Source: Aliiruegeria haliotis
GTDB lineage: Bacteria > Pseudomonadota > Alphaproteobacteria > Rhodobacterales > Rhodobacteraceae
Length of the DNA stretch: 64,000 nt
NCBI RefSeq assembly: GCF_003003255.1
Contig: NZ_PVTD01000002.1
Location: forward strand, 496,001-560,000
Reading direction: 5' to 3'
Below, piece by piece: positions 1,004 through 11,195 of this stretch (the stretch's first letter is position 1; each line of letters begins with the position of its first letter). The notes under the pieces were generated by a model. It saw only the letters and a program-made list of their open reading frames with translations, searched no databases and was not told where the DNA came from. The position numbers and the translations under genes were made by a program.

Positions 1004-1078
1004 GCTCCGTTCGTCTATCGGTTAGGACGCCAGGTTTTCAACCTGGAAAGAGGGGTTCGATTCCCCTACGGAGTGCCA
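1004..1078 (+). tRNA. tRNA-Glu (anticodon UUC)
   Basis: This is a 75-nt cloverleaf. The 7-bp acceptor stem GCTCCGT/ACGGAGT has a G-U first pair, and CCA is encoded. The anticodon stem CCAGG/CCTGG closes the loop TTTTCAA, which gives UUC. The T arm contains GGTTCGATTCC. The 3' end serves as the integration site of the adjacent element: the last 15 nt recur at 11180-11194. The gene stays complete on the left side of the element, so integration does not destroy it. Confidence 0.97.
1064..1078. repeat. attL: 15-bp core repeat within the tRNA-Glu 3' end
   Basis: CCCTACGGAGTGCCA here is identical to 11180-11194. It comprises the 3' acceptor strand, part of the T stem and the CCA of tRNA-Glu, a classic target for tyrosine integrases. 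The integrase gene begins its 3' end only 20 bp to the right. Confidence 0.88.
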
Positions 1079-1098
1079 CTTCCTGATCTAACGCATTG

Positions 1099-2169
1099 TT
1101 AGTCATTGGCTTTTGCCTCCTTCCTGTCCAACTCGTCAGAAAGGTTGGACACGTTGCCCGCGCTCAGCTTCGCAAAACCGCTGTCCGCAAGGCGCGCCCG
1201 GTTGGCCTTTTTCGTGTAGACCGCCGCCTGCGTCGTGTCCGAGTGTGCGAGGTAGGAAGCGATCTCCCATTCTGTCGCCCCAGCGTCCGCAAGGCGCGTG
1301 GCACCGGCTTTCCGCAGGCCATGCAGCGATCCGGGGACGTTCGCCTCGGCACACCTGTCCCGAAACCAGTTTCCCAGCGATGCGACGGCATAGGGCTTGT
1401 CGCTCTTGTCCTGAGTGACGAATAGCATCCGGTCTTTCGGAACGTGGCGCAGCTCCTCCGCCAGCTCGGGCAGTATGGGCATGTCAGCCGCAACAGCGGT
1501 CTTGTGCCTGCGATATGCGATCCGCCCGCCCTTGATGTGCTGACGGCCGACTCGGGCGAGGTCTTGACGCGCCATGCCGGTGTTGAGTGCCAGCAGCATG
1601 ACCAGCCGCGCTTTCGTGCCCGGCCCGTGACGCTCAAGGAAGCGGTTCACCTCGGCCTCTGTCCAAGTGTGGAAGCCGTCCGGGTTCGTTTTCATCCGCT
1701 CAGCGTGACGCGCCGGGTTCGGGCCGGTGTAACTCAGCTTCTTGGCCGCGAAGTTGAACAGCATCGAAAGGTTCTTCTTGACCGTGTTCGCGGCGGTCGG
1801 GCCTTTCTTCTTCGACATGAGGGCTTCGACGTGCCGGACTTCCAGCCGCTCGAAGTGATACTTGCCTGCCTCTTTGCGCAGCCAATCCAGCTCAAGGCGG
1901 ATCGTCCGCTTGCGACTGTCGGAGAGGTTCTGAAAGCGAAGGCTGCGAAGGTATTGCTCGATCAGCCATGCCAGCGTCCCGGCCAGCGCCGTCGATGAGC
2001 TGGACGCCTTGGAACCGGCAAGCGCAGCCTCATAGGCTGCCAGAAACTCGGGCGATCCGTAGGGACCGGGAATATTGGTGCGGAAGTCGCCGCGCTCAAA
2101 CTTCCAGTAGACGCGCCCCTTGACCACGTTCTTGCGGACGCCGGGATATGGGTTCTTGCGCCGCGTCAT
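1099..2169 (-). CDS. int: Tyrosine-type site-specific integrase of the tRNA-Glu element
   Basis: A 356-residue tyrosine recombinase. The N-terminal half (about 60-150) fits a core-binding domain and the C-terminal half is catalytic. Visible catalytic residues are R201 (NTGMARQDL), K223, H283 and R286 (SLHGLRKAG), H309 (YLAHSD) and the nucleophile Y318 (AAVYTKK). It should catalyse recombination between the tRNA-Glu 3' end and attP. The gene is transcribed towards the tRNA and its stop lies 20 bp from the attL core. Its start overlaps the previous gene by ATGA, so it is translationally coupled. No excisionase is recognisable by sequence; the 61-residue gene upstream is a candidate by position only. 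Confidence 0.95.
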   Translation of the reverse strand: MTRRKNPYPGVRKNVVKGRVYWKFERGDFRTNIPGPYGSPEFLAAYEAALAGSKASSSSTALAGTLAWLIEQYLRSLRFQNLSDSRKRTIRLELDWLRKEAGKYHFERLEVRHVEALMSKKKGPTAANTVKKNLSMLFNFAAKKLSYTGPNPARHAERMKTNPDGFHTWTEAEVNRFLERHGPGTKARLVMLLALNTGMARQDLARVGRQHIKGGRIAYRRHKTAVAADMPILPELAEELRHVPKDRMLFVTQDKSDKPYAVASLGNWFRDRCAEANVPGSLHGLRKAGATRLADAGATEWEIASYLAHSDTTQAAVYTKKANRARLADSGFAKLSAGNVSNLSDELDRKEAKAND

Positions 2170-2351
2170 TTCAGCAGCTCGTCAGGATCGGGGCCAGCGG
2201 CCTGCGCCGCCGCGCCTTCGGGAAACACGACAACGCGGCCGGTGGCATGATCCACCTCAACCCTGCCGATCCGCAGGCCAGCAGACAGCGCCGCTTGAAG
2301 GGTGCGCTTGATTTCAGCTTGGGATACAAGGGCCGGGCGCGCTGCCATCAC
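2166..2351 (-). CDS. Small protein of unknown function upstream of int
   Basis: 61 residues, starting MMAARPALVSQAEIKR. A short predicted helix (SQAEIKRTLQAALSAG) is followed by a beta-like stretch (RIGRVEVDHATGRVVVFPE) and an acidic proline-containing tail. It overlaps the upstream gene at its start and int at its end (ATGA), so it belongs to the integrase transcript. I do not recognise a family. Position suggests a recombination directionality factor or an accessory integration protein, but no helix-turn-helix is evident. Confidence 0.65.
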   Translation of the reverse strand: MMAARPALVSQAEIKRTLQAALSAGLRIGRVEVDHATGRVVVFPEGAAAQAAGPDPDELLK

Positions 2352-3049
2352 ACAACCTCCCCGCCGGGGACTTCCGGCGCATGGGCCAGCTCGGCAAGGC
2401 CATAGAGCGCCTGACTGTCTAGCCGGACCATGATTGCCCGGCCGCTGCGCGTCTTGCCGTGCCGCCGGGTGTGATACCGGAAGCGCCAGTTGTATTCGGT
2501 TTGCTTCTTGTTTTTGGTCCAGTCTGCGCCTTCATCGACCGTGCCGAAGTCCAGACCGTTCAGGTGAATATCCACCCACGCATCGCCGTCAACCCACAGC
2601 TCCACACAGTCATAGAACGACATGCCGTCGCGGCCGGTCTTGCGGTATTCGTCAGCGATCTTGCAGAGCGCAGCGGAGACCGTCTTGGGCACGTCCACGA
2701 AGAATTTCGGCAGCACTCGGTTGCCGTATTCGTCCTTGTCGCTCCACTGGATTGTGTCGTTGTAAAGAACGGGGTCGCCATCGTCCGCGCGCGTGACTTC
2801 CAGATAGCTGAAACGGGCGCTCAGAAGCTGGGCGATGGTGGCGGGCGCGGCCGTAGGCGGATCGGTCACCAGCGCCGCACAGATTGCGGTGGCATAGTCG
2901 GTGCTGACCATCTGGGGCGCGTGACGCCCCTTGCCGGAGGTGGTGAACATGCCGGACTGCCGCACGGTCTTGATGAGCGAATTGGCCCTCGGCGCGTCTC
3001 CGCCAAGGGTGCCCTCAAGCCACTTCTGTATGTCCGACAGCTTTGCCAT
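2348..3049 (-). CDS. Element-encoded protein of unknown function (possible regulator or replication protein)
   Basis: 233 residues from the chosen start MAKLSDIQKWLEG. The frame is open further upstream to 3208, but that extension overlaps the preceding gene and crosses the palindromes at 3057-3105, so the shorter start is preferred. The N-terminal 60 residues (DIQKWLEGTLGG, ANSLIKTVRQSGMF, GRHAPQMVSTDYATAI) look like a helical nucleic-acid-binding fold seen in alphaproteobacterial phage proteins. The C-terminal part is rich in aromatic and acidic residues (SFYDCVELWVDGDAWVDIHL) and ends in a basic patch (FRYHTRRHGKTRSGRA). I assign no function. It sits in the int operon behind its own putative operator. 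Confidence 0.7.
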   Translation of the reverse strand: MAKLSDIQKWLEGTLGGDAPRANSLIKTVRQSGMFTTSGKGRHAPQMVSTDYATAICAALVTDPPTAAPATIAQLLSARFSYLEVTRADDGDPVLYNDTIQWSDKDEYGNRVLPKFFVDVPKTVSAALCKIADEYRKTGRDGMSFYDCVELWVDGDAWVDIHLNGLDFGTVDEGADWTKNKKQTEYNWRFRYHTRRHGKTRSGRAIMVRLDSQALYGLAELAHAPEVPGGEVV

Positions 3050-3056
3050 GGGAATA

Positions 3057-3105
3057 GGAATGCCATTCCGATGATGCCGCGTCAAGGTAAAAGGAACGGC
3101 ATTCC
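3057..3105. promoter_or_regulatory. Pair of palindromic operator-like sites
   Basis: GGAATGCCATTCC (3057-3069) is a perfect palindrome around one central base. GGAACGGCATTCC (3093-3105) is a near-identical second copy, 36 bp away centre to centre. Between them lies a minus-strand TTGACG (3085-3080). The sites sit directly before the preferred start at 3049, as expected for an operator controlling that gene. The binding protein is unknown. Confidence 0.5.
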
Positions 3106-3146
3106 ATAATTCGAGCGGGGTTGCATCTCCGAAGTGCATCGCCCGG

Positions 3147-3578
3147 TCACGTCGCGCGGTCGCGTTCGATCCGGCCCGGATTGCCGAGAATGTCCCCGAT
3201 GCGGTCAAGCTGGCGGGTGGCCCGGTGCATCGCCATCACCACGCGATCCGCGACATACAGCGCAGCATCGCGGTTGAAGCCGTCCTCATCCAGATCACCG
3301 TCCTTCACAAGCGCCTCAAGCGCATGAGACAGGTGCAAGGCTTCCTCGATGCCATCGGGGTAGCTTTCGGAGTTCGGGTGCATGAGCTTGAGCGCCGCGC
3401 GGATCACCTCGGGCGGATCGCTGGGCAAGCTGTCCAGATAGGCCGCTTGGCGATCCCGCAGAGCTTGGGTGCCCTCAATGTGGTCGCGGAAGATGGGTTC
3501 GGCGCAGAGGGCGTGGCCTTTGGCGGCTTTGTTCTCCCACATGGTCACCGGCTTGAGTTCATCGGTCGAATTGGTCAC
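3147..3578 (-). CDS. Element-encoded protein of unknown function, first gene of the int operon
   Basis: 143 residues from a GTG start at 3578, chosen because an AAAGGG ribosome-binding site precedes it at good spacing and because the predicted promoter starts transcripts near 3618. An ATG at 3605 in the same frame is the alternative. The product is mostly helical and acidic in the middle (SDPPEVIRAALKLMHP, IEEALHLSHALEALV) with a basic C-terminus (IGDILGNPGRIERDRAT). No family is recognised. It diverges from the XRE regulator and heads the integrase transcript, so an early or regulatory role is inferred. Confidence 0.65.
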   Translation of the reverse strand: MTNSTDELKPVTMWENKAAKGHALCAEPIFRDHIEGTQALRDRQAAYLDSLPSDPPEVIRAALKLMHPNSESYPDGIEEALHLSHALEALVKDGDLDEDGFNRDAALYVADRVVMAMHRATRQLDRIGDILGNPGRIERDRAT

Positions 3579-3592
3579 GGCAGGCCCTTTCT

Positions 3593-3671
3593 TGTGTATC
3601 AGCATCTCTAATTTGGGTATCAGAACCATATTCGCAATCTTGTTGCTGTCAACCATCAATGTGGGTATCAT
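3593..3671. promoter_or_regulatory. Overlapping divergent promoters with three direct-repeat operator sites
   Basis: Plus strand: TTGCTG (3643-3648), 17 bp, TATCAT (3666-3671), seven bases before the regulator ATG at 3678. Minus strand: TTGACA (3652-3647), 16 bp, TATGGT (3630-3625). The two -35 boxes overlap by two bases. A nine-base motif TGGGTATCA occurs at 3614-3622 and 3662-3670, with a variant TGTGTATCA at 3593-3601. One copy covers the plus -10 box, one the minus start site and one the minus leader. This is the layout of a phage-type genetic switch; the XRE product is the natural ligand. Inference from sequence. Confidence 0.6.
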
Positions 3672-3677
3672 CACCAC

Positions 3678-3923
3678 ATGAGTATGACCGGGACACAAAT
3701 TCGCGCCGCGCGGGTGCTGCTTGAGATGGAGCAATCCGAGCTGGCGGAACGCGCCTCGGTCAGCATCAACACGGTTCGGAACATGGAAGCGAAGGGCCGT
3801 CAGGTTGTCCGGGTAAGGCTGGACACGCTGATGAAGGTCCAGAAGGCGCTTGAGGAAGCCGGGGTTGAGTTCATCGCAGAGAATGGCGGGGGCGCGGGCG
3901 TCCGCTTGAGCAAGGGACAGTGA
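3678..3923 (+). CDS. XRE/Cro-CI type helix-turn-helix regulator of the element
   Basis: 81 residues. The helix-turn-helix spans about residues 6-45 (IRAARVLLEMEQSELAERAS, VSINTVRNME). The C-terminal GVEFIAENGGGAGVRL tail is common in small alphaproteobacterial XRE regulators. This and the next small ORF are the only plus-strand genes of the element. The predicted -10 box ends seven bases before the ATG, so the mRNA may be leaderless. It probably binds the GGGTATCA repeats and represses both its own promoter and the int operon. The family call is firm; the target is inferred. Confidence 0.88.
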   Translation: MSMTGTQIRAARVLLEMEQSELAERASVSINTVRNMEAKGRQVVRVRLDTLMKVQKALEEAGVEFIAENGGGAGVRLSKGQ

Positions 3924-3924
3924 A

Positions 3925-4086
3925 ATGGATGATCAGAGCGCGTTCGAGCTGACGGAAGCGATCAAGAAACAGAATGAGCTGCAAGAGGAAGCGAATGGGC
4001 TGATGCGGTCGCTCATCCCGGCGATGGAAGCCACAGCGCAAGAGCTGCTTGAGCTGCGCCAGCAGCTCGCCAAGTCCGAGAAATGA
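3925..4086 (+). CDS. Small coiled-coil protein co-transcribed with the regulator
   Basis: 53 residues, beginning MDDQSAFELTEAIKKQ and ending QQLAKSEK. It is almost entirely helix-forming and rich in Glu, Gln and Leu with heptad-like spacing (ELQEEANGLMRSLIPAM), consistent with a coiled coil. It starts one base after the stop of the XRE gene, so the two form an operon. No family is recognised. It could modulate the regulator, as small antirepressors do, but this is conjecture. A 24-codon ORF (4083-4157) overlaps its stop by ATGA and is probably not a gene. Confidence 0.55.
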   Translation: MDDQSAFELTEAIKKQNELQEEANGLMRSLIPAMEATAQELLELRQQLAKSEK

Positions 4087-4090
4087 TGAT

Positions 4091-4127
4091 GCGCGCCGCG
4101 CCCGCCAGAGAGAGCGGGCCGCGCGCT
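4091..4127. terminator. GC-rich hairpin between convergent transcripts of the element
   Basis: GCGCGCCGCGCCCGC and GCGGGCCGCGCGC flank the short loop CAGAGAGA. It separates the plus-strand regulator transcript from the minus-strand portal gene. No T-run follows, so it may be only a pause or a Rho-dependent end. Confidence 0.3.
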
Positions 4128-4213
4128 GTCGGGGTTGTTGCGGCACTCACCGACTGATCCGAGGCGCTTCCGGGCTGAACAAGCTCGACAAGAGACCCGA
4201 GGCGCGCCCCGCC

Positions 4214-5278
4214 CTATTCCTTCCAGTCCACCATGCGCATGGCCCCGGACACGTCGCCCGGCGGAATGCCCGCCTCTTTCGCCTCGGCCATCGTCTTGAT
4301 GATCGCGGACAGGGCACGGGCGCGTCCGCCAGCGTCGAAGGCTTGCAGGGGCCGGATTGTGTCGATCTCCACCAGCCCGCCGAGCTTTGCGGATGCCTCA
4401 TCGGCCAACAGCGCGGCGATGGGTTGCAGCGTCCAGATTGCAAGCTGGCGCTGCGCCTCCCTCACGGCCGGGCCGGTGGCGGCGCGGTTCACCAGCGACG
4501 GCAGGACGCCATAAGCCATGAGAATGCCCTCGCGGGCCGCTGCCAGCGTCTCGGCCGTCATGCTCTTGGACAGGTCCGGCGAGAGCTGATCCGGCTTCTG
4601 CCCTATCTGGGGGTTCATGCCCGCCGCCGTCGCCTGCGCTATGCCCTCGATCACCAGCGTCGAGCCGCGCCGCCCTCGGAACGCGCCTCGCATCGAGGCC
4701 ATGTCCTCGGCCCCGGTGTCCGGCAGGGGCACGATCTGCGATCCGAGCGGGGCATTCTCGAAGGTCTCGCCAAGGGCCGATTCCACCGCGTGGAGCATCG
4801 CCCCGGTGAGGCTGGACCGGCGCAGCGGGGCCGTGCCGATCCACGGGGTCAGGTTATCCGAGCCGATCCGAAGGTGCAGCACCTCGGCCGCAAGAGCTGT
4901 CACCGTGCGCCCGCCGCCCGCCTCGGGGATGGACAGGCGATAGGCGCGCGGCTTGCCGTCGCGGGTGGTCACGTCCCAATCCGTTGCCGGGACAAGCCCC
5001 AGCTCGGTGATCAGATAGACCGCCTCGCCGTTCAGCGCGGCCGAGCGGGCAATCATCGCCATCGTCTGGCGGGTCAGCAGCTCGGTGCCGGACACGTCCG
5101 CCATTGCGAACCCGCCTTCCCACAGGCTGACGCAGCTCTGCACCGTCGCCGTCAGCTCGGCCACGCCACGCCGCCCGCTGATGAAGCTGTCCCGCGCTGC
5201 CATGACCTGGGCAGTATAGCCGGACCCGCTGGACCTGGCCTCGATCGGGCGCAGCTTGTTCATGAGCCATCCGAACAT
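4214..5278 (-). CDS. HK97-family phage portal protein
   Basis: 354 residues from MFGWLMNKLRP. This start is chosen because a textbook Shine-Dalgarno GGAGGTGATC precedes it directly, within the end of the protease gene. Portal-like segments include GNNLTP-type IGSDNLTPWIGTAPLRR and the conserved region LSPDLSKSMTAETLAAAREGI followed by AYGVLPSLVN, where the family loads DNA through a dodecameric ring at one capsid vertex. It is slightly shorter than many HK97 portals (about 380-420). It is the last gene of the head operon, downstream of protease and capsid, whereas lambdoid phages usually place portal first. Confidence 0.88.
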   Translation of the reverse strand: MFGWLMNKLRPIEARSSGSGYTAQVMAARDSFISGRRGVAELTATVQSCVSLWEGGFAMADVSGTELLTRQTMAMIARSAALNGEAVYLITELGLVPATDWDVTTRDGKPRAYRLSIPEAGGGRTVTALAAEVLHLRIGSDNLTPWIGTAPLRRSSLTGAMLHAVESALGETFENAPLGSQIVPLPDTGAEDMASMRGAFRGRRGSTLVIEGIAQATAAGMNPQIGQKPDQLSPDLSKSMTAETLAAAREGILMAYGVLPSLVNRAATGPAVREAQRQLAIWTLQPIAALLADEASAKLGGLVEIDTIRPLQAFDAGGRARALSAIIKTMAEAKEAGIPPGDVSGAMRMVDWKE

Positions 5279-5280
5279 GA

Positions 5281-5859
5281 TCACCTCCACCGGATCGCAG
5301 CGGGGCGGTGCGTCAGGCGCTTCGCCACCTCGCCAATGGGTTGCCAGTTCCGGGCCTCGATCTGGGCTTGCGGATAGGCGGGTTTCGTGACGGCGCTGAT
5401 CTCGATCAGGTCAGCCGCCTTGATGGTCCGCAGGATCGCGGTGCCGCGTTCCTCGACCGTCTCGCCGCCCGGCCGGACGCGGAAGCCGGGGGACAAGCCC
5501 CGCACCAACCCGGCCGCGTGGGCCGAGAGGAAGTCCCGAACATAGCTGACCTGCCCCATGTCGGCGCTGATGGTCGCTTCCACCGTCAGCGCGTCATCCG
5601 ATTCCGTCAGGGTCAGGGTGCCGGCCGAACGTGAGGCCAGCGGCTTGTTGAAGTCATGGCCGGACAGAAAGTGCACGTCCTCGCCGCGCTCGATCCGATC
5701 CGCGAATGCACGGGCTGCGATCATCTCACGACGCTCACGGCCCATGCCCACGCGCTCGGCCAGTACGGTTTCCCGGCCATAGGGGAAGGTTGCCCGAAGG
5801 CGGGTTTCCCCGCCCTCGGTGCGCAGCTCAAGGCTGCCGACATGAGCGCCCCAGAGCAT
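5281..5859 (-). CDS. HK97-family prohead protease
   Basis: 192 residues, starting MLWGAHVGSLELR. The ATG overlaps the capsid stop by one base (TAATG). Catalytic signatures of the U35 herpesvirus-assemblin-like fold are present: H68 in LSGHDFNKPLA and S123 in GLSPGFRV. It should cleave the delta domain of the capsid protein during prohead maturation. The stop is three bases from the portal ATG, so translation is coupled. Confidence 0.9.
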   Translation of the reverse strand: MLWGAHVGSLELRTEGGETRLRATFPYGRETVLAERVGMGRERREMIAARAFADRIERGEDVHFLSGHDFNKPLASRSAGTLTLTESDDALTVEATISADMGQVSYVRDFLSAHAAGLVRGLSPGFRVRPGGETVEERGTAILRTIKAADLIEISAVTKPAYPQAQIEARNWQPIGEVAKRLTHRPAAIRWR

Positions 5860-7130
5860 TACGCGGCTTCCAGTTCGAGGCCGGTCAGCAGTTCGAGCTG
5901 GGCCGGGCGCGCCACGGTCACGTCCATCGTCGCCAGTGCCGTGATCCGCAGCCCGCCGGACTGCGCATCGCTGTAGGGATCGCGGATCATGTCCACCGCG
6001 CCCCATGCGCCGATGAAGATCGGGGCGACACCGCCCGCCGCGGTGGTCAGCAGCGCCGAGGTGGCGGAAGGCGTCCCGGACGGCGCGGCAAGCGCGTTGT
6101 TCGTCATGGCGATGTTGCCCGCCGGGATGTTCTTCACCAGCCGGTCCCACTCGGACACGGCCGTGCCGCTGATCAGGGCGCTGTCCAGATAGTCCCACAG
6201 TTCGGGCCGGATCAGGGCGCGCACCGCATCCGGCGAACCGGCCGCGTTGGCGGTCATGAACCGGGTGACCGCCGAGCGGAACGCGCCCCAGCTCGCCAGC
6301 GCGGCAACGGCCGTGGACGTGATGCCGTAGGTCGCCGCGCCCGCGATGACGCCGAGCGGCTGACCGTTGGCCCCGGTGCCGAGGAACGCCGCCTGATCCA
6401 TCGCCGCGCCCATTGCGCCGCTCATGTCCCGCCGCACAGCCTGTTCCAGCGCCGCACCGGACTGCTTGAGCGTCTTGCGCGTGATGCGCATCTGAATGCC
6501 GAGGTTGTGGTCCGGCGACATGGCGCGGTCGGTGGTGGCGTAGGTGGTCGGCCCGGCCACGTTCGCCGTCTCGCCGTCCGCCCAGCCCGCCGTCACGGCC
6601 GAAGTCGTCACCGGCCATTCCACCGCGCCCGCGTCGATGCTGATCATCTGAGCGCCCATGCGCGCCGCCACGCTGTCCGGGAACAGCCGGTCGATGATGG
6701 GGCGGGTCTGGATCGGGTTCGGGGTGCCGCTGGCGACGGTCTCACCGGCCCGGACTTCCAGCGCCTGCCACGGCACGGGGATGCCACGGAAGCCGCCCGC
6801 GCTGCGCAGCTCGGACACGATCTCGGCCGTCTGCCCGTCAAGCTGACGCCCTTCATCGAGGGCCAGCGCGACCTGACGCATCTCGAAACCGGCCATGAGG
6901 TCGGCCCATTCCTGCGCCGTGCGGGTTTCCAGTTCGCTTCCCGCGTCCCGGCGTTCGGTATCTTCCGCGATCAGGGCGGCGCGATACCGGGTTTCGTTTG
7001 AGCGGTATTCCCGGTCCAGCTCATCCATCTTGCGGACTTCATCCTCGGACGGGTTCTCTTTGCCTGCCAGCTCGGCAAGGTTCTGGCGGATTTCGCTTTG
7101 CCGCCGGGCGATCTTCACAGATTCGAGCAT
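5859..7130 (-). CDS. HK97-fold phage major capsid protein
   Basis: 423 residues. Residues 1-60 form a charged coiled coil (RRQSEIRQNLAELAGKEN, MDELDREYRSNE), the typical cleavable delta/scaffold domain. The HK97 capsid body follows: GGFRGIPVP and PIIDRLFPDSVAARMGAQ in the middle and QPLGVIAGAATYG and NNALAAPSGTPSAT towards the end. With its own capsid, protease and portal the element should be able to build its own head rather than remodel a helper capsid. The start has a three-base gap from the HNH stop. Confidence 0.93.
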   Translation of the reverse strand: MLESVKIARRQSEIRQNLAELAGKENPSEDEVRKMDELDREYRSNETRYRAALIAEDTERRDAGSELETRTAQEWADLMAGFEMRQVALALDEGRQLDGQTAEIVSELRSAGGFRGIPVPWQALEVRAGETVASGTPNPIQTRPIIDRLFPDSVAARMGAQMISIDAGAVEWPVTTSAVTAGWADGETANVAGPTTYATTDRAMSPDHNLGIQMRITRKTLKQSGAALEQAVRRDMSGAMGAAMDQAAFLGTGANGQPLGVIAGAATYGITSTAVAALASWGAFRSAVTRFMTANAAGSPDAVRALIRPELWDYLDSALISGTAVSEWDRLVKNIPAGNIAMTNNALAAPSGTPSATSALLTTAAGGVAPIFIGAWGAVDMIRDPYSDAQSGGLRITALATMDVTVARPAQLELLTGLELEAA

Positions 7131-7133
7131 TGG

Positions 7134-7469
7134 TTATCCTTTCTGCTCAACAGGGGTGCCGGGCCGCTCAAGCGACTCGACTGCTTGCCGCCAGTCACGG
7201 CGGTCCTCTCGGGGCGGGGGATGCCCGCACTCGATCCGGGTCTTTCGGGTGTGGCAACCGGGGCAAAGCGCCTGAAGGTTGCGCGGGTCATAGGACAGTT
7301 CGGGGTGCGTCCTGACCGGCTTGATATGGTCCACCTCAAGCCGCCCGCCGCAGCCGCAGGATTTGCAGCGATAGCGGTCGCGTTCGAGGATCTCGGCCCG
7401 CAGCGCCTTCCAGCGTTTCGTGCGGGTGATCTTCCGGGAATGCCGGTGATGCTCCTTGCGGATGCTCAT
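7134..7469 (-). CDS. HNH endonuclease of the packaging module
   Basis: 111 residues. A basic N-terminus (RKEHHRHSRKITRTKRW) is followed by an HNH domain: two zinc-binding CxxC/CxxCH pairs (CKSCGC and CPGCHTRK), EVDHIKPV, and the Asn of DPRNLQALC. HNH proteins encoded beside TerL are needed for cos cleavage with the terminase in HK97-like phages, and they accompany packaging modules in capsid-forming satellites. It overlaps the head-closure gene by ATGA and lies between that gene and the capsid gene. Confidence 0.9.
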   Translation of the reverse strand: MSIRKEHHRHSRKITRTKRWKALRAEILERDRYRCKSCGCGGRLEVDHIKPVRTHPELSYDPRNLQALCPGCHTRKTRIECGHPPPREDRRDWRQAVESLERPGTPVEQKG

Positions 7470-7807
7470 GCGATGTCATCCGTCTGGGCGGTGATTTCGA
7501 GGAAGCCCCGGTTGTCGGGAACCTCCTTGATGCCGTCGATCTCGAAGGTGACGCCCTCGTGCACAAGGCGGTCATACCGGGCGATGCTGCGCCCGAATGC
7601 CGTCGCCCGGATGATGAAGCGGGTCACCAGCTTGTTGTCCCACGCGCCCGCGCTGAGGCGTTCAGCGTCGGACACGTCCCGCCGCCGGGCGAAAATCGCG
7701 GGGCCGAAGTCATTCCATTCGTTGTCAAAGCCGCCGTAGCCGTCCGGGGTCTGGGTCGCCCGCTGGATTTGGATGCGCCGGTTGAGGCTTCCCGAGTTCA
7801 GAACCAT
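7466..7807 (-). CDS. Phage head closure / head-tail adaptor protein
   Basis: 113 residues starting MVLNSGSLNRRIQIQRAT. The pattern 'LNRRIQIQR...PDGYGGFDNEW...FARRRDVS' with 'ARYDRLVHEGVTFEIDGIKEVPDNRGFLEITAQ' is typical of the SPP1 gp16-like head-tail joining family. It closes the filled capsid and offers the interface for a tail. Its start lies 10 bases inside the TerL gene. A satellite needs such an adaptor to accept tails supplied by a helper phage. Confidence 0.85.
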   Translation of the reverse strand: MVLNSGSLNRRIQIQRATQTPDGYGGFDNEWNDFGPAIFARRRDVSDAERLSAGAWDNKLVTRFIIRATAFGRSIARYDRLVHEGVTFEIDGIKEVPDNRGFLEITAQTDDIA

Positions 7808-9516
7808 GCCATCTTCGCTTTCGTCTGGGGTTGAGCCGCGATGCGCGCGCCCTGCGCCACGGCGAGGACGGAAGCCGCCGCCGCGTCGATCCGGCCGGTG
7901 GAGCGGGCTTTCGCCAGTTTCAGGTTGTTGGCCGGGTCGCGCAGGCACACCGCATCCGCGAAGGCCGAGCGCAGCAGCAGCGACGGCCGGGCCTTCACCA
8001 GCCCGTCGAAGGCGGCGCGGCGGAACCGCTCGCAATCCTCGCCGCCGTCGCGGAAGCCCTGCCCGCGCCAGACACACGGGGCGCGGACGCCCGCCCGGTT
8101 CAGCGCCTCGCCCAGCTCGGCCTGCTTGTATCGGTCCATCGTGATTGCAATGACGTTCTGGCCCTCGACGTGGCGCATCACCTCGGCCAGCCACGGGGCC
8201 ACCGGAACCGTCTTGTCCCCGAGGACGGTCAGCTCGCAGCGCTCCTGCATCTCGACGTATCGCCCGGCCACGCCGTCCGCCTGCCCTCGGTCCAAGAGGC
8301 TGGGCATGGACGGGAAGGTGCCGAGGCATTCGAGCCGCCCGGTCTGGGGCCAGTAGAACGCCGCCGCCGTCATCGAGGCCGAGCCGCCGAGGTCGATCCC
8401 GATCACAACGCCGCCTTCGCGCGGCGGCAGGGCGTCGGTTTCGCAGTTCAGCCACTCATCGAGGGTAATCAACAGGTCGCGGGACTCGCCGGACACGCGC
8501 TCATTGCGATTGTAGAGGCGGAAGGACGTGAGGCTGGACCCGCCGCGCGCAATCGCCCGCTTGGCTTGGGCTTCCAGCCATTCCAGCGAACCGCCGATGC
8601 CGTGCGGGGCGCCGGGGTTGGCGATCAGCAGGCTTTCGGGGTCATCGGCGGGCAGACCCGGCGCGGGCCGATGCTCTTGGACGTAGGAACCGGGTGCCGG
8701 ATCGTCGATCCACCGGGAAAACGGGTGCGTGTCGTCGCTGGCGGACGTGCTGATGAGGAAGGCCCGGCCGTCCCGCTTGCCGAGGCCGGAAAGCAAGGCG
8801 TGTTCCAGCTCGTCGCCGCGATCCAGCGCCCAGTGCCCGCGCTCATCGAGGATCGCCATCGTCGGAGCACCGCCGAGAGCGGACTTGCCGTCAGCAGCGA
8901 TGACGCGAAGGACGTGCCCGCCGCCGTCGCCCTCAAACTCGATTTCGAGGCGCGGGGCGCGGCGGTAGATCAGGCGGCGTTGCAGCTCAAGCGGCAGGGT
9001 GGCAGCGAACCCGGCCACGAAGTCCCAGATGATGCGGCCCTGATCCCGCGTCCGGGCGGCTGCGATGATCTCGCGCCGGGGCTGGCGATCCCAGACGCCA
9101 ATGAGACCGCCGAGCGCAAGGCCCGCCGTGATCGCGGATTTGCCGTTGCCGCGCCCGATGCTGAGAACAGCGTTGGCGGTGTCCTCGGCCATCGCGCCTT
9201 TGATGAATTGGCTTTGAAAGGGGGCGAGGGAAACCGGCTTTCCAGCGTTCGGACCTTCCGGGATACGAAGTCCATGCATGAATTGCATAGCTCGCTCGGC
9301 CGGGGTCCCCTCATCATCCTGAGCGAAAAGAGAAAACTCAGACGCACGGTTACCGGCAAGGATGAAAGGCGCGGCATTGGGACCAGCGTGGGCCTGCATC
9401 TCGACACCCGCGAACAGATCGGCGGTATCGGCCTCGGTCGCAGCCTCGCGGTCGCAGGGCAGCAGCGATCCGTCTGCCTTGCGCCACTCTCTTTTTTTCT
9501 TCGCTGCGCCTGTCAT
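7798..9516 (-). CDS. Phage terminase large subunit (TerL)
   Basis: 572 residues from MTGAAKKKREWRK. The start has GAGGA upstream; an in-frame extension to 9717 looks non-coding. Walker A GRGNGKSA lies at about 121-128, Walker B MAILDERGHW at about 220-228 (D224, E225), and the nuclease-domain acidic motif VIGIDLGGSASM at about 378. TerL pumps DNA into the prohead and cuts it. No obvious small terminase gene precedes it, which is unusual. It begins the tightly overlapping block TerL-adaptor-HNH-capsid-protease-portal. Confidence 0.92.
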   Translation of the reverse strand: MTGAAKKKREWRKADGSLLPCDREAATEADTADLFAGVEMQAHAGPNAAPFILAGNRASEFSLFAQDDEGTPAERAMQFMHGLRIPEGPNAGKPVSLAPFQSQFIKGAMAEDTANAVLSIGRGNGKSAITAGLALGGLIGVWDRQPRREIIAAARTRDQGRIIWDFVAGFAATLPLELQRRLIYRRAPRLEIEFEGDGGGHVLRVIAADGKSALGGAPTMAILDERGHWALDRGDELEHALLSGLGKRDGRAFLISTSASDDTHPFSRWIDDPAPGSYVQEHRPAPGLPADDPESLLIANPGAPHGIGGSLEWLEAQAKRAIARGGSSLTSFRLYNRNERVSGESRDLLITLDEWLNCETDALPPREGGVVIGIDLGGSASMTAAAFYWPQTGRLECLGTFPSMPSLLDRGQADGVAGRYVEMQERCELTVLGDKTVPVAPWLAEVMRHVEGQNVIAITMDRYKQAELGEALNRAGVRAPCVWRGQGFRDGGEDCERFRRAAFDGLVKARPSLLLRSAFADAVCLRDPANNLKLAKARSTGRIDAAAASVLAVAQGARIAAQPQTKAKMAWF

Positions 9517-9910
9517 CGTCTTGTCCTCGCGCGTCTCTCTCTGTTCAACCGTTGCTCTTGCCCTCTGCTTACTGGTGAGGGTTGCTGTGACGGTCAGCAT
9601 GGCGACTTCTGAGCCGCCCGCTGACCGCCGCGATCTTGCCTGCTCACCGGAGCCGGGCCGCCGCTTAGGCCACGCCTCCGCTGTCCAGCGTCGAAGGCGC
9701 GCACTCCATCTGTTCACCGCCCGTTGGTGGCAGTGCTATCGGGCGTGGAGTGACAGGCTTTCGCCTGCATGGCCGCCCAGTTGGTGGTGCGATAGCTTCC
9801 CCGAGTACCACCGTGTCGCGCCGCCCCTCGGTCAAGTCGTCAAGCCCTGAGCGCCGCCCTGTTCTGTTCCCGCCTGCCTGCCCTGATCAGGGGCAAGGGC
9901 CGGTGTCTGC
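9517..9910. other. 394-bp region upstream of terL without a convincing gene
   Basis: No reading frame of phage-like composition is visible on either strand. The region holds a 14/15-bp direct repeat (9717-9730 and 9773-9787), the inverted pair CACTCCA/TGGAGTG at about 9702 and 9746, and the palindrome CCCTGATCAGGG (9881-9892). In head-module phages this position is where terS and the cos or pac site usually lie. The repeats could therefore mark a packaging site, but this is inference. Confidence 0.4.
9717..9787. repeat. Short direct repeat upstream of terL
   Basis: CCGCCCGTTGGTGG (9717-9730) and CCGCCCAGTTGGTGG (9773-9787) differ by one inserted base and are 56 bp apart. They lie in the only sizeable non-coding gap of the packaging module. 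Confidence 0.5.
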
Positions 9911-10141
9911 TTACCGCTCGATCACCTCCATCATCGGTTCGGGGGCAGTGCCCAGCTCGGACACCAGCCGCCGCATGATCTGCGCTTGCTTGACCGTGGG
10001 TCGCCACGATGGGCGCTTGCCATGTCGGGCGATGGACCGAACGAAGCCCTTGAGCCATTCGTCCGAGCCGTCAGCCATCACGCGCCGCATGACGATGGGC
10101 CAGCGGAAGGTGAGGATTTCGTCCAGCTCGCTATCGGTCAT
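9911..10141 (-). CDS. Small element protein of unknown function between connector and TerL
   Basis: 76 residues, MTDSELDEILTFRWPI to PEPMMEVIER. A helical, basic middle (WLKGFVRSIARHGKRPSWRPTVKQAQIMRRLV) suggests nucleic-acid contact. It overlaps the connector gene by ATGA. Its position before terL makes it a candidate small-terminase substitute or packaging specificity factor, but it is shorter than usual TerS proteins (about 130-180) and no family is recognised. Confidence 0.65.
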   Translation of the reverse strand: MTDSELDEILTFRWPIVMRRVMADGSDEWLKGFVRSIARHGKRPSWRPTVKQAQIMRRLVSELGTAPEPMMEVIER

Positions 10142-10686
10142 ACCTGCACCCCGCGATACCGTGCGCCCACGCGGGCCATGTGCGGCGACGTGGTGAGGCT
10201 CTTGGCGTCCATCGGGGACCGGCCGTCATAGTGCAGCGCGGCCTGATCCATGAGGGCTTGTGCGAGGTCTGGCGGCACGTCCGCCGCCGCAGCCCCGAAC
10301 CCGGCCTGATACTCGATTGTCATGCGGCTGGGGGTCAGGTCGTGATAATCCGCCAGCCAGCGGATATAAGGCCGGTTGCCGCCCACGAAGTCGAAGGCGG
10401 TGAATGCCTCGCCGTCGATGGTCACGGTCGGAACGTCATAATCCGCAACGGGGCCGATGGGCAGGCTCAAGCCGTATTCCCGCGACGGGTTGAAGATCGT
10501 CACCCGGATCGTCTGGGTCAGCAGGGCAATCTGGGCGAATTGCTCGATCTCGGCCGCTGCCGTCTCCCCGATGTTCTGGATCGCGGTATCTTCCGCGTGA
10601 TCGGGCACCCGAAGGTGCAACTTGAGGTCATCGAGGACGAAGGGCAGCGCAGCGCCGCCCGCAGTCCGGTGCACAAGCATCTTCAT
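10138..10686 (-). CDS. Phage head-tail connector (HK97 gp6-like)
   Basis: 182 residues. LDDLKLHLRVPDHAEDTAIQ near the N-terminus and the helical pair ending in DLAQALMDQAALHYDGRS fit the gp6-like 'DNA packaging / head-tail connector' family, which stacks on the portal ring. The start overlaps the upstream gene by ATGA. It is separated from the rest of the head block by one small gene and the 394-bp gap. Confidence 0.85.
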   Translation of the reverse strand: MKMLVHRTAGGAALPFVLDDLKLHLRVPDHAEDTAIQNIGETAAAEIEQFAQIALLTQTIRVTIFNPSREYGLSLPIGPVADYDVPTVTIDGEAFTAFDFVGGNRPYIRWLADYHDLTPSRMTIEYQAGFGAAAADVPPDLAQALMDQAALHYDGRSPMDAKSLTTSPHMARVGARYRGVQV

Positions 10687-11195
10687 GCCGCCACCTCCAT
10701 TTCGCTGATGTGCCGGAAGAACGCCGCCTGATCCTTCGCGCTCATGGCCTCGAAGGATGCGAGGGCATATGCCTTGAGTTCGGAGCGGCTGGCGTAGGAC
10801 GCCCAGAACCGGGCCTCATCCATGCCGCCGAGGAAAATGGGCAACGGAGCACCGGCCGAGCCGATGGACGCCGCCGCCGTCATTTCCGCGTGGTCCAGCT
10901 CAAGGGAATTGAGGGCCGAGAACGCCAGCGCCGCGCGCTCGGTCTCGGATAGCCTGACAGCCGCCACGAAGCTGAAACCGGACCATGCATCGGCGGTGCC
11001 GAGGGTCAGGCAATAGCCGAGCATCCGCGACATGCGCTTGTGCTCGGGCTTCATGAAGCGGCCGAGGCTGGAAGGCTTTTTGGCGTTGGACAAAGCGGGC
11101 TTTTCCGCTTTGTTTTCAATGGGGGTATTCTGGCCGGTTGGACGGGTTACAGGCTTGATTTCGTTGGAAACTGCGACAACCCTACGGAGTGCCAT
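10683..11195 (-). CDS. Element protein of unknown function, first gene of the head operon, starting within attR
   Basis: 170 residues if translation starts at the ATG formed by 11195-11193 (MALRRVVAV). The first 45 residues are basic and low complexity (KPVTRPTGQ, KAEKPALSNAKKPSSLG). The remainder is helical (LSETERAALAFSALNSLEL, FEAMSAKDQAAFFRHI). The attR core supplies codons 1-6, so the upstream sequence differs between integrated and circular forms; in the predicted circle the first codon becomes GTG. An internal start (MKPEHKRM) is possible. No family is recognised. Position at the head of the packaging transcript suggests a packaging or redirection role. Confidence 0.6.
   Translation of the reverse strand: MALRRVVAVSNEIKPVTRPTGQNTPIENKAEKPALSNAKKPSSLGRFMKPEHKRMSRMLGYCLTLGTADAWSGFSFVAAVRLSETERAALAFSALNSLELDHAEMTAAASIGSAGAPLPIFLGGMDEARFWASYASRSELKAYALASFEAMSAKDQAAFFRHISEMEVAA
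11180..11194. repeat. attR: 15-bp core repeat
   Basis: An exact copy of the tRNA-Glu 3' end CCCTACGGAGTGCCA (see 1064-1078). It marks the right border of the element. The core overlaps the 5' end of the minus-strand gene 10683-11195. Confidence 0.88.

What the first reader, a model, noticed from the sequence alone, without database searches (positions are those of the whole stretch)
1064..11194. Head-only integrative element at tRNA-Glu: candidate capsid-forming phage satellite of Rhodobacterales
The element has an integrase, an XRE switch and a complete head/packaging set (connector, TerL, adaptor, HNH, capsid, protease, portal). Tail, lysis and replication genes are absent. Intact frames and 1- to 10-bp overlaps argue against decay. 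It is bounded by an exact 15-bp tRNA repeat. This matches the cf-PICI concept (own heads, helper tails). I cannot tell from sequence whether close relatives in this order are already described.
Basis: partly seen in the sequence, partly recalled or inferred. Interest (0 to 1): 0.85.

Follow-up and report, generated by a model that had tools for sequence, protein, structure and literature searches.

The report
Tailless ten-kilobase phage satellite family
A 10-kb mobile DNA element sitting in a tRNA gene encodes its own virus heads but no tail, and relatives of the same size and layout in many marine bacteria suggest that it spreads by borrowing tails from other phages.

Summary
Window 1064-11194 is a 10.1-kb element between exact 15-bp tRNA-Glu repeats, with integrase, divergent XRE gene and an intact HK97-type head set. 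No small terminase, replication, tail or lysis gene is recognised.

It is not a lone remnant. Relatives occur in about 40 of 394 family genomes, with conserved gene order, purifying selection, 12 tRNA targets and nearly constant att-to-att size (45 of 49 at 9.3-10.95 kb), leaving about 3.4 kb outside called core genes. Capsids 93-96% identical sit in other genera whose GTA capsids are only 71-78% identical, so the elements move. Own heads plus movement without tails best fits a capsid-forming satellite that borrows helper tails; that step is inferred.

New here: relatives carry an unrelated lambda-type head cassette on the same backbone, with interleaved integrases (16 label changes, at least 13 forced). 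AlpA, primase and TerS were not found in the window, so formal cf-PICI membership is open. One paper's list of main cf-PICI hosts names no Alphaproteobacteria. GTA tails as helper: the association failed its control. No particle, excision or empty site was observed.

The parts
1004..1078 (+). tRNA-Glu (ttc), integration target
   Evidence: ARAGORN; Rfam
1064..1078 (.). attL core CCCTACGGAGTGCCA
   Evidence: exact repeat
1099..2169 (-). tyrosine integrase
   Evidence: PF00589, phrog_1
2166..2351 (-). 61-aa backbone gene (g61) next to the integrase
   Evidence: cluster in 10 of 81 loci; match in 8 of 23 lambda-head contigs
2348..3049 (-). 233-aa protein, no family match
3147..3656 (-). 169-aa protein (start uncertain), no family match
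   Evidence: cluster in 7 of 81 loci
3678..3923 (+). XRE/Cro-type regulator, divergent
   Evidence: PF01381, phrog_5823
3925..4086 (+). 53-aa gene downstream of the XRE gene, no family over a cut-off
4101..4213 (-). conserved non-coding stretch after portal; sub-threshold Rfam RF03044 match at 4124-4194
4214..5290 (-). portal
   Evidence: PF04860, phrog_12
5281..5859 (-). prohead protease (S78)
   Evidence: PF04586, phrog_80
5859..7130 (-). HK97-type major capsid protein
   Evidence: PF05065, phrog_617
7134..7469 (-). HNH endonuclease
   Evidence: PF01844, phrog_144
7466..7807 (-). head completion / stopper Hc1
   Evidence: PF05521, phrog_25; 43% to Paracoccus phage Pthi1
7798..9516 (-). large terminase subunit (start inferred)
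   Evidence: PF20441, PF03354, phrog_9
9639..9656 (-). conserved non-coding motif CCGGCTCCGGTGAGCAGG, role unknown
9911..10141 (-). 76-aa backbone protein g76, helical model
   Evidence: 31 of 79 loci; model mean pLDDT 88
10138..10686 (-). head-tail adaptor Ad1
   Evidence: TIGR02215, phrog_442, PF05135; RcGTA adaptor Rcc01688
10683..11195 (-). backbone protein gR, helical model; ORF starts in attR
   Evidence: 40 of 79 loci; model mean pLDDT 82
11180..11194 (.). attR core
   Evidence: exact repeat

Best explanation
This is a head-only phage satellite, a member of a widespread, mainly alphaproteobacterial family. Shown by sequence: it lies at the 3' end of tRNA-Glu with its own integrase, has an XRE switch, and encodes an HK97-type shell (capsid, S78 protease, portal), a packaging motor (TerL plus HNH) and two connector proteins (Ad1, Hc1) that close the head, but no tail. 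Inferred: a helper phage switches it on; it excises; the circle places the integrase operon directly upstream of the co-directional head operon; TerL and HNH cut and package one ~10-kb genome into a small head; Ad1 and Hc1 present a docking surface for the helper's (probably siphoviral) tail; the hybrid particle injects the DNA into a new cell, where it integrates again. The nearly constant length is read as a capsid-size limit.
For: Family: TerL in 44 of 394 family genomes at E<=1e-30, 40 of them at >=49% identity (fragments included), then a gap down to 30-34% for the other 4. Capsid relatives: 97 IMG/VR stretches, the 80 kept all on contigs <=15.6 kb; 184 GTDB stretches, 80 kept. Profile recount in 79 anchored loci: HNH 78, protease 78, TerL 77, portal 75, integrase 66 (profiles built from the same loci). 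att: 49 of 79 loci have a tRNA-anchored repeat >=13 bp, 12 tRNA types, median 10,155 bp, 45 of 49 at 9.3-10.95 kb. In 46 of the 49 (three short ones dropped): size SD 451 bp, called core genes median 6.9 kb, called non-core genes median 1.7 kb and at most 3.9 kb, longest non-core ORF 414 aa. dN/dS mostly 0.04-0.3, highest 0.48 for gR. Mobility: element-capsid identity exceeds GTA-capsid identity in 12 of 16 genomes tabulated, by >=10 points in 8, and the two do not correlate (rho 0.11). A tailed prophage with terminator, tape measure and tail-tip genes sits in the same genome.
Against: No helper, particle, excision or transfer was observed; no exact terminal repeat of 15 bp or more in 80 IMG/VR contigs and no attP junction of this element in IMG/VR. 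TerS, AlpA and primase were not recognised in the window. Stopper types A and B were found in only 26 and 15 of 79 relatives, so not every member is shown to bring its own stopper. The empty site was not shown. 30 of 79 loci gave no tRNA-anchored repeat (21 of them have no tRNA in the stretch held). Many IMG/VR contigs are metagenomic and may be cut, so short contigs alone prove little.
Confidence: 0.76

Rival explanations
1. Decayed or truncated prophage that happened to keep its head genes.
For: Head genes are of ordinary phage families; no tail or lysis gene.
Against: Same content and ~10-kb att-to-att size in many genera, intact frames, low dN/dS, many tRNA targets, TerL hits separated from other phage TerLs by an identity gap.
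Confidence: 0.06
2. The element uses the tail of the host's own gene transfer agent (GTA) rather than a phage tail.
For: Its adaptor profile scores higher with the host GTA adaptor (71 bits) than with those of one Paracoccus phage (22) and one E. coli cf-PICI (17), and the RcGTA adaptor is its only convincing PDB match. The GTA capsid gene is in 39 of 40 element-bearing family genomes against 275 of 354 others, p=0.001.
Against: The control fails: genomes with an ordinary tailed prophage are enriched for GTA too (112 of 125 against 202 of 269, p=0.0007), and element against prophage is p=0.19. 11 of 48 element genomes tested (of 80 GTDB loci) show no GTA capsid at 1e-60, among them Thioclava sediminum with a 97% identical element capsid; drafts and divergent GTAs may account for some. 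The stopper profile scores 107 bits with siphophage Pthi1 and 23 with the GTA.
Confidence: 0.07
3. The heads are not for transfer: an island whose capsid or connector proteins interfere with infecting phages, spread by other routes such as transformation.
For: No transfer was observed; several small genes have no known family. PADLOC gave only HTH-type matches to the XRE gene among 7 proteins scanned.
Against: Terminase, HNH, protease and portal are all under purifying selection, and total length varies less than non-core content; interference alone would need neither.
Confidence: 0.08

Closest known systems
Capsid-forming PICIs (cf-PICIs); compared with one E. coli element that I take to be of this kind (L206)
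   Same: Integrase, own capsid, protease, portal, Hc1, connector, HNH and TerL, no tail genes; family profiles of TerL, protease, integrase, stopper and HNH match its proteins, connector and portal weakly.
   Different: Window has no recognised TerS, AlpA or primase; other gene order; the capsid profile does not match the E. coli capsid; ~10 kb against a 14-kb average, and Alphaproteobacteria are not in the list of main hosts (PMC10803314, passages).
MulchRoom/MiniFlayer satellites of Streptomyces phages (PMC10690885, passages)
   Same: Own capsid and packaging genes, presumed helper tails at least for MulchRoom.
   Different: Direct terminal repeats, virulent helpers, other hosts; described as without significant similarity to known satellites. 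Not compared by sequence here.
Rhodobacterales gene transfer agent (RcGTA)
   Same: Related adaptor (PDB 6tba); weakly related protease, portal and stopper.
   Different: The GTA is a separate cluster with its own tail; the window's genome has both.
Paracoccus phages Pthi1 and Shpa
   Same: Stopper 41-43% identical.
   Different: Records of 38-40 kb; Pthi1 has an annotated tail, and of its nine head and packaging genes compared only stopper, HNH and weakly the connector matched.

Membership tests
cf-PICI | Integrated, att-bounded, own integrase | tested here: met
   empty site not shown
cf-PICI | Capsid, protease, portal, connectors, TerL, HNH (list from PMC10690885) | tested here: met
cf-PICI | Small terminase subunit (same list) | tested here: inconclusive
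   No TerS family match for gR or g76; lambda-head relative L230 does have one
cf-PICI | No tail or lysis genes | tested here: met
   No tail or lysis family in the window; none among scanned recurrent clusters of 81 loci (seven of 30 clusters not scanned); non-core called length at most 3.9 kb in 46 att-bounded elements
cf-PICI | PICI-type regulation and replication (AlpA, primase; PMC10111431 passages on Gram-negative PICIs, and recall) | tested here: not met
   None recognised in the window; in relatives a primase/helicase in 18 of 79 and an excisionase-like gene cluster in 8 of 81
cf-PICI | Capsid within the described cf-PICI capsid clades | tested here: inconclusive
   No match to one E. 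coli capsid; the papers with the clades are not held
cf-PICI | Induced by a helper and packaged with its tail | not testable with these tools
   needs experiment
Decayed prophage | Broken genes, irregular size, tailed close relatives | tested here: not met

The most novel reading that the evidence does not exclude
The family is an alphaproteobacterial satellite lineage defined by a small backbone (gR, g76, a conserved 18-bp site, g61, integrase) that swaps whole, unrelated capsid-and-packaging cassettes (HK97-type and lambda-type) while staying near 10-12 kb, so that head type, integration site and tail docking evolve as separate modules.
Probability: 0.55. Interest if true: 0.85.

Novelty: new variant of a known kind. 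Interest (0 to 1): 0.72.

Why it matters
Satellites that build their own heads and take only tails are described from few bacterial groups. A common family of them in marine Alphaproteobacteria, with nearly constant genome length and exchangeable head cassettes, would be a natural experiment on capsid-size control and head-tail compatibility, and would reclassify many short 'incomplete prophages' as functional mobile elements.

Tried and rejected
GTA tails as the specific helper: the enrichment (39 of 40 against 275 of 354) is matched by a control prophage (112 of 125), so it is no evidence (genome lists were compared by eye and transcribed).

The conserved motif as packaging (cos) site: within 900 bp upstream of the TerL core in 50 of 161 loci (154 with TerL; copies of one element in IMG/VR and GTDB counted apart), at 268-378 bp; missing in 82 that have the room; 6 matches elsewhere. 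It also follows g76 in four contigs with an unrelated lambda-type terminase, so it belongs to the backbone and I do not call it cos.

gR and g76 as small terminase: no sequence support, no Foldseek match at E<=0.001 for either model (gR: viral and PDB; g76: PDB), only middling Z for g76 (best 6.1); these absences exclude nothing. Lambda-head relatives with gR and g76 have a separate TerS.

Free circular form: no terminal repeats in 80 IMG/VR contigs, no attP junction. Empty site: not resolved. Rfam RF03044: below threshold in the window and absent at gathering score in 13 relatives, two of them lambda-head. The TerL row was out of frame and is replaced. A search for unknown stoppers between TerL and HNH gave mostly unconvincing frames (33 of 61 without a match). 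The c8 protein, suspected as an adaptor from position and length, found no informative family.

Literature: the primary cf-PICI paper and the satellite classification paper are not held, nor a 2025 Cell paper; what I know of them is recalled. Passages only were read of PMC11389934, PMC10690885, PMC12946183, PMC10111431 and PMC10803314. Ten searches of the open-licence library listed no title or visible abstract that describes such elements in Rhodobacterales; most listed papers were not opened.
Full report
What is there. The window carries an element of 10,116 bp (repeat to repeat) at tRNA-Glu, bounded by an exact 15-bp copy of the tRNA 3' end. From left to right, minus strand unless noted: integrase, three genes without family (two of them without any match at all), an XRE gene and a 53-aa gene on the plus strand, then portal, protease, capsid, HNH, stopper, TerL, g76, adaptor and gR. 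Nothing in it matches a tail, lysis or replication family, and no small terminase is recognised.

Is it chance or decay? TerL of this kind is in 44 of 394 family genomes at E<=1e-30; 40 are 49% identical or more (fragments included), the other 4 are 30-34% and I left them out as other phages. The capsid finds 97 IMG/VR stretches, of which the 80 kept lie on contigs of 15.6 kb or less, and 184 GTDB stretches, 80 kept. In a class-wide sample 2 of 385 genomes had the capsid at 1e-60, the window's own included, so it is rare outside this family. I called genes in 81 loci (80 GTDB loci plus the window) and clustered them. Of 30 clusters found in five or more loci, those with a window member and ten further representatives were scanned and none is a tail family; seven clusters were not scanned. 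Two loci (L189, L192) had no capsid call in the anchor cluster and dropped out, leaving 79. Gene order is conserved. Profile recount in the 79: HNH 78, protease 78, TerL 77, portal 75, integrase 66, adaptor 40, gR 40, c8 35, g76 31, stopper type A 26, primase/helicase 18, stopper type B 15 (the profiles come from the same loci, so this is not independent).

Size. 58 of 79 loci have a tRNA in the stretch held; 49 have a repeat of 13 bp or more linking it to the other side of the head genes. The distances have a median of 10,155 bp, and 45 of 49 lie between 9.3 and 10.95 kb; 12 tRNA types are used. Without three short outliers (6.6-8.1 kb; two of them rest on 13-14 bp), 46 elements have a median of 10,254 bp and a size SD of 451 bp, while non-core coding length has an SD of 685 bp. 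I read this as a limit set by head size (inference). About 3.4 kb lies outside called core genes, which is too little for a siphoviral tail module of roughly 8-10 kb (recalled figure).

Selection and movement. Against 15 chosen relatives (two of them copies of one element; pairs under 60% identity dropped), dN/dS of the element's genes is mostly 0.04-0.3, with single values up to 0.34 for portal, 0.39 for protease, 0.40 for g76 and 0.48 for gR (TerL 0.07-0.21). The element capsid is 93-96% identical in Aliiroseovarius, Roseovarius, Ruegeria, Puniceibacterium and others, while the GTA capsid of those genomes is 71-78% identical. In 16 genomes that I tabulated, out of 37 with a GTA, the two identities do not correlate (rho 0.11); in 4 of the 16 the GTA capsid is the more similar one.

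Helper. The window's genome has two PF05065 capsids, its GTA and this element, and on contig C4 a prophage with TerL, portal, protease, capsid, terminator, tape measure and tail-tip genes, a possible helper. Element and C4-type prophage co-occur in 19 of 40 against 106 of 354 genomes (p=0.03), which may only reflect prophage-rich genomes. The stopper is closest to Paracoccus siphophages and the adaptor to the GTA adaptor. Presence of the GTA is not specific: see the control.

A second head type. The 19-base site CCCGGCTCCGGTGAGCAGG is in 21 IMG/VR contigs of at most 20.5 kb; all 21 carry g76 of this family, and two of them, L230 and L234, show none of the HK97-type head genes. L230 carries a phrog_57 small terminase, phrog_15 TerL, phrog_21 portal, a fused protease-capsid protein (phrog_4523) and a phrog_2545 adaptor instead; L234 has homologues of these five in the same order. 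A search with the fused capsid protein gave 25 loci: 23 at 30-100% identity on contigs of 4.3-18.2 kb, and two at 28% on contigs of 28.6 and 39.9 kb. In 23 contigs examined (22 of those 23 plus L234; L263 was left out), an integrase of the profile is in 22, g61 in 8, gR with g76 and the site in 4, a primase/helicase of the lambda-head element in 3; two more site matches, in L257 and L258, lie on the opposite strand and look like chance. L076 holds a lambda-type and an HK97-type element in tandem. Of 15 lambda-head contigs, four have tRNA-linked repeats, 10.6-12.5 kb apart. In a quick integrase tree of 82 rows (61 from HK97-head loci, 21 from lambda-head contigs; some rows are extra integrases from flanks), the label changes 16 times, at least 13 forced by well-supported branches, against 18.9 for shuffled labels (34 of 500 shuffles as low). 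So head cassette and integrase are exchanged nearly freely.

Comparison. The concept is that of cf-PICIs, which PMC10690885 describes as encoding capsid, protease, portal, connectors, both terminase subunits and HNH and depending on the helper only for tails (passages). PMC10803314 lists their main hosts and a 14-kb average; Alphaproteobacteria are not named (passages). PMC11389934 says cf-PICI capsids form three clades (passages); I could not test whether this family is one of them. Against an E. coli element that I take to be a cf-PICI, profiles of TerL, protease, integrase, stopper and HNH match, portal and connector weakly, the capsid profile not. It works like a cf-PICI; formal membership stays open because AlpA and primase were not found and TerS is unresolved.

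What is shown and what is inferred. Shown: boundaries, gene content, family, near-constant size, selection, horizontal spread, second head type. Inferred: excision, own particles, tail borrowing, capsid-size limit, coupling of head expression to circularisation.

Noticed in passing
window 9639-9656: CCGGCTCCGGTGAGCAGG, a conserved non-coding site roughly 230-275 bp after g76, kept with two unrelated terminase types; role unknown.
   Followed up: partly
window 11180-11195: The gR reading frame starts inside the right att copy; its ATG uses one host base and would read GTG in the excised circle, where the integrase operon would lie directly upstream of the head operon (sequence).
   Followed up: no
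window 4101-4213: Conserved non-coding stretch after portal in an alignment of 38 adaptor-bearing loci, with a strong predicted hairpin and a sub-threshold RF03044 match.
   Followed up: partly
L197 1-20000 and L198 1-3900 (G000 contig C4): Tailed prophage whose capsid is not PF05065 and whose tail-tip proteins are 41-55% identical to the host GTA's.
   Followed up: partly
L146, L161: Relatives with TerL and capsid so close that only HNH fits between, and no stopper gene called: perhaps the helper supplies it.
   Followed up: no
L076 1-12695: Lambda-head element and HK97-head element in tandem.
   Followed up: no
G452 contig C2, 75332-90495: In a congener of the Ruegeria locus a tRNA-Phe att-like copy recurs 14.5 kb away, suggesting another island at the same site.
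   Followed up: no
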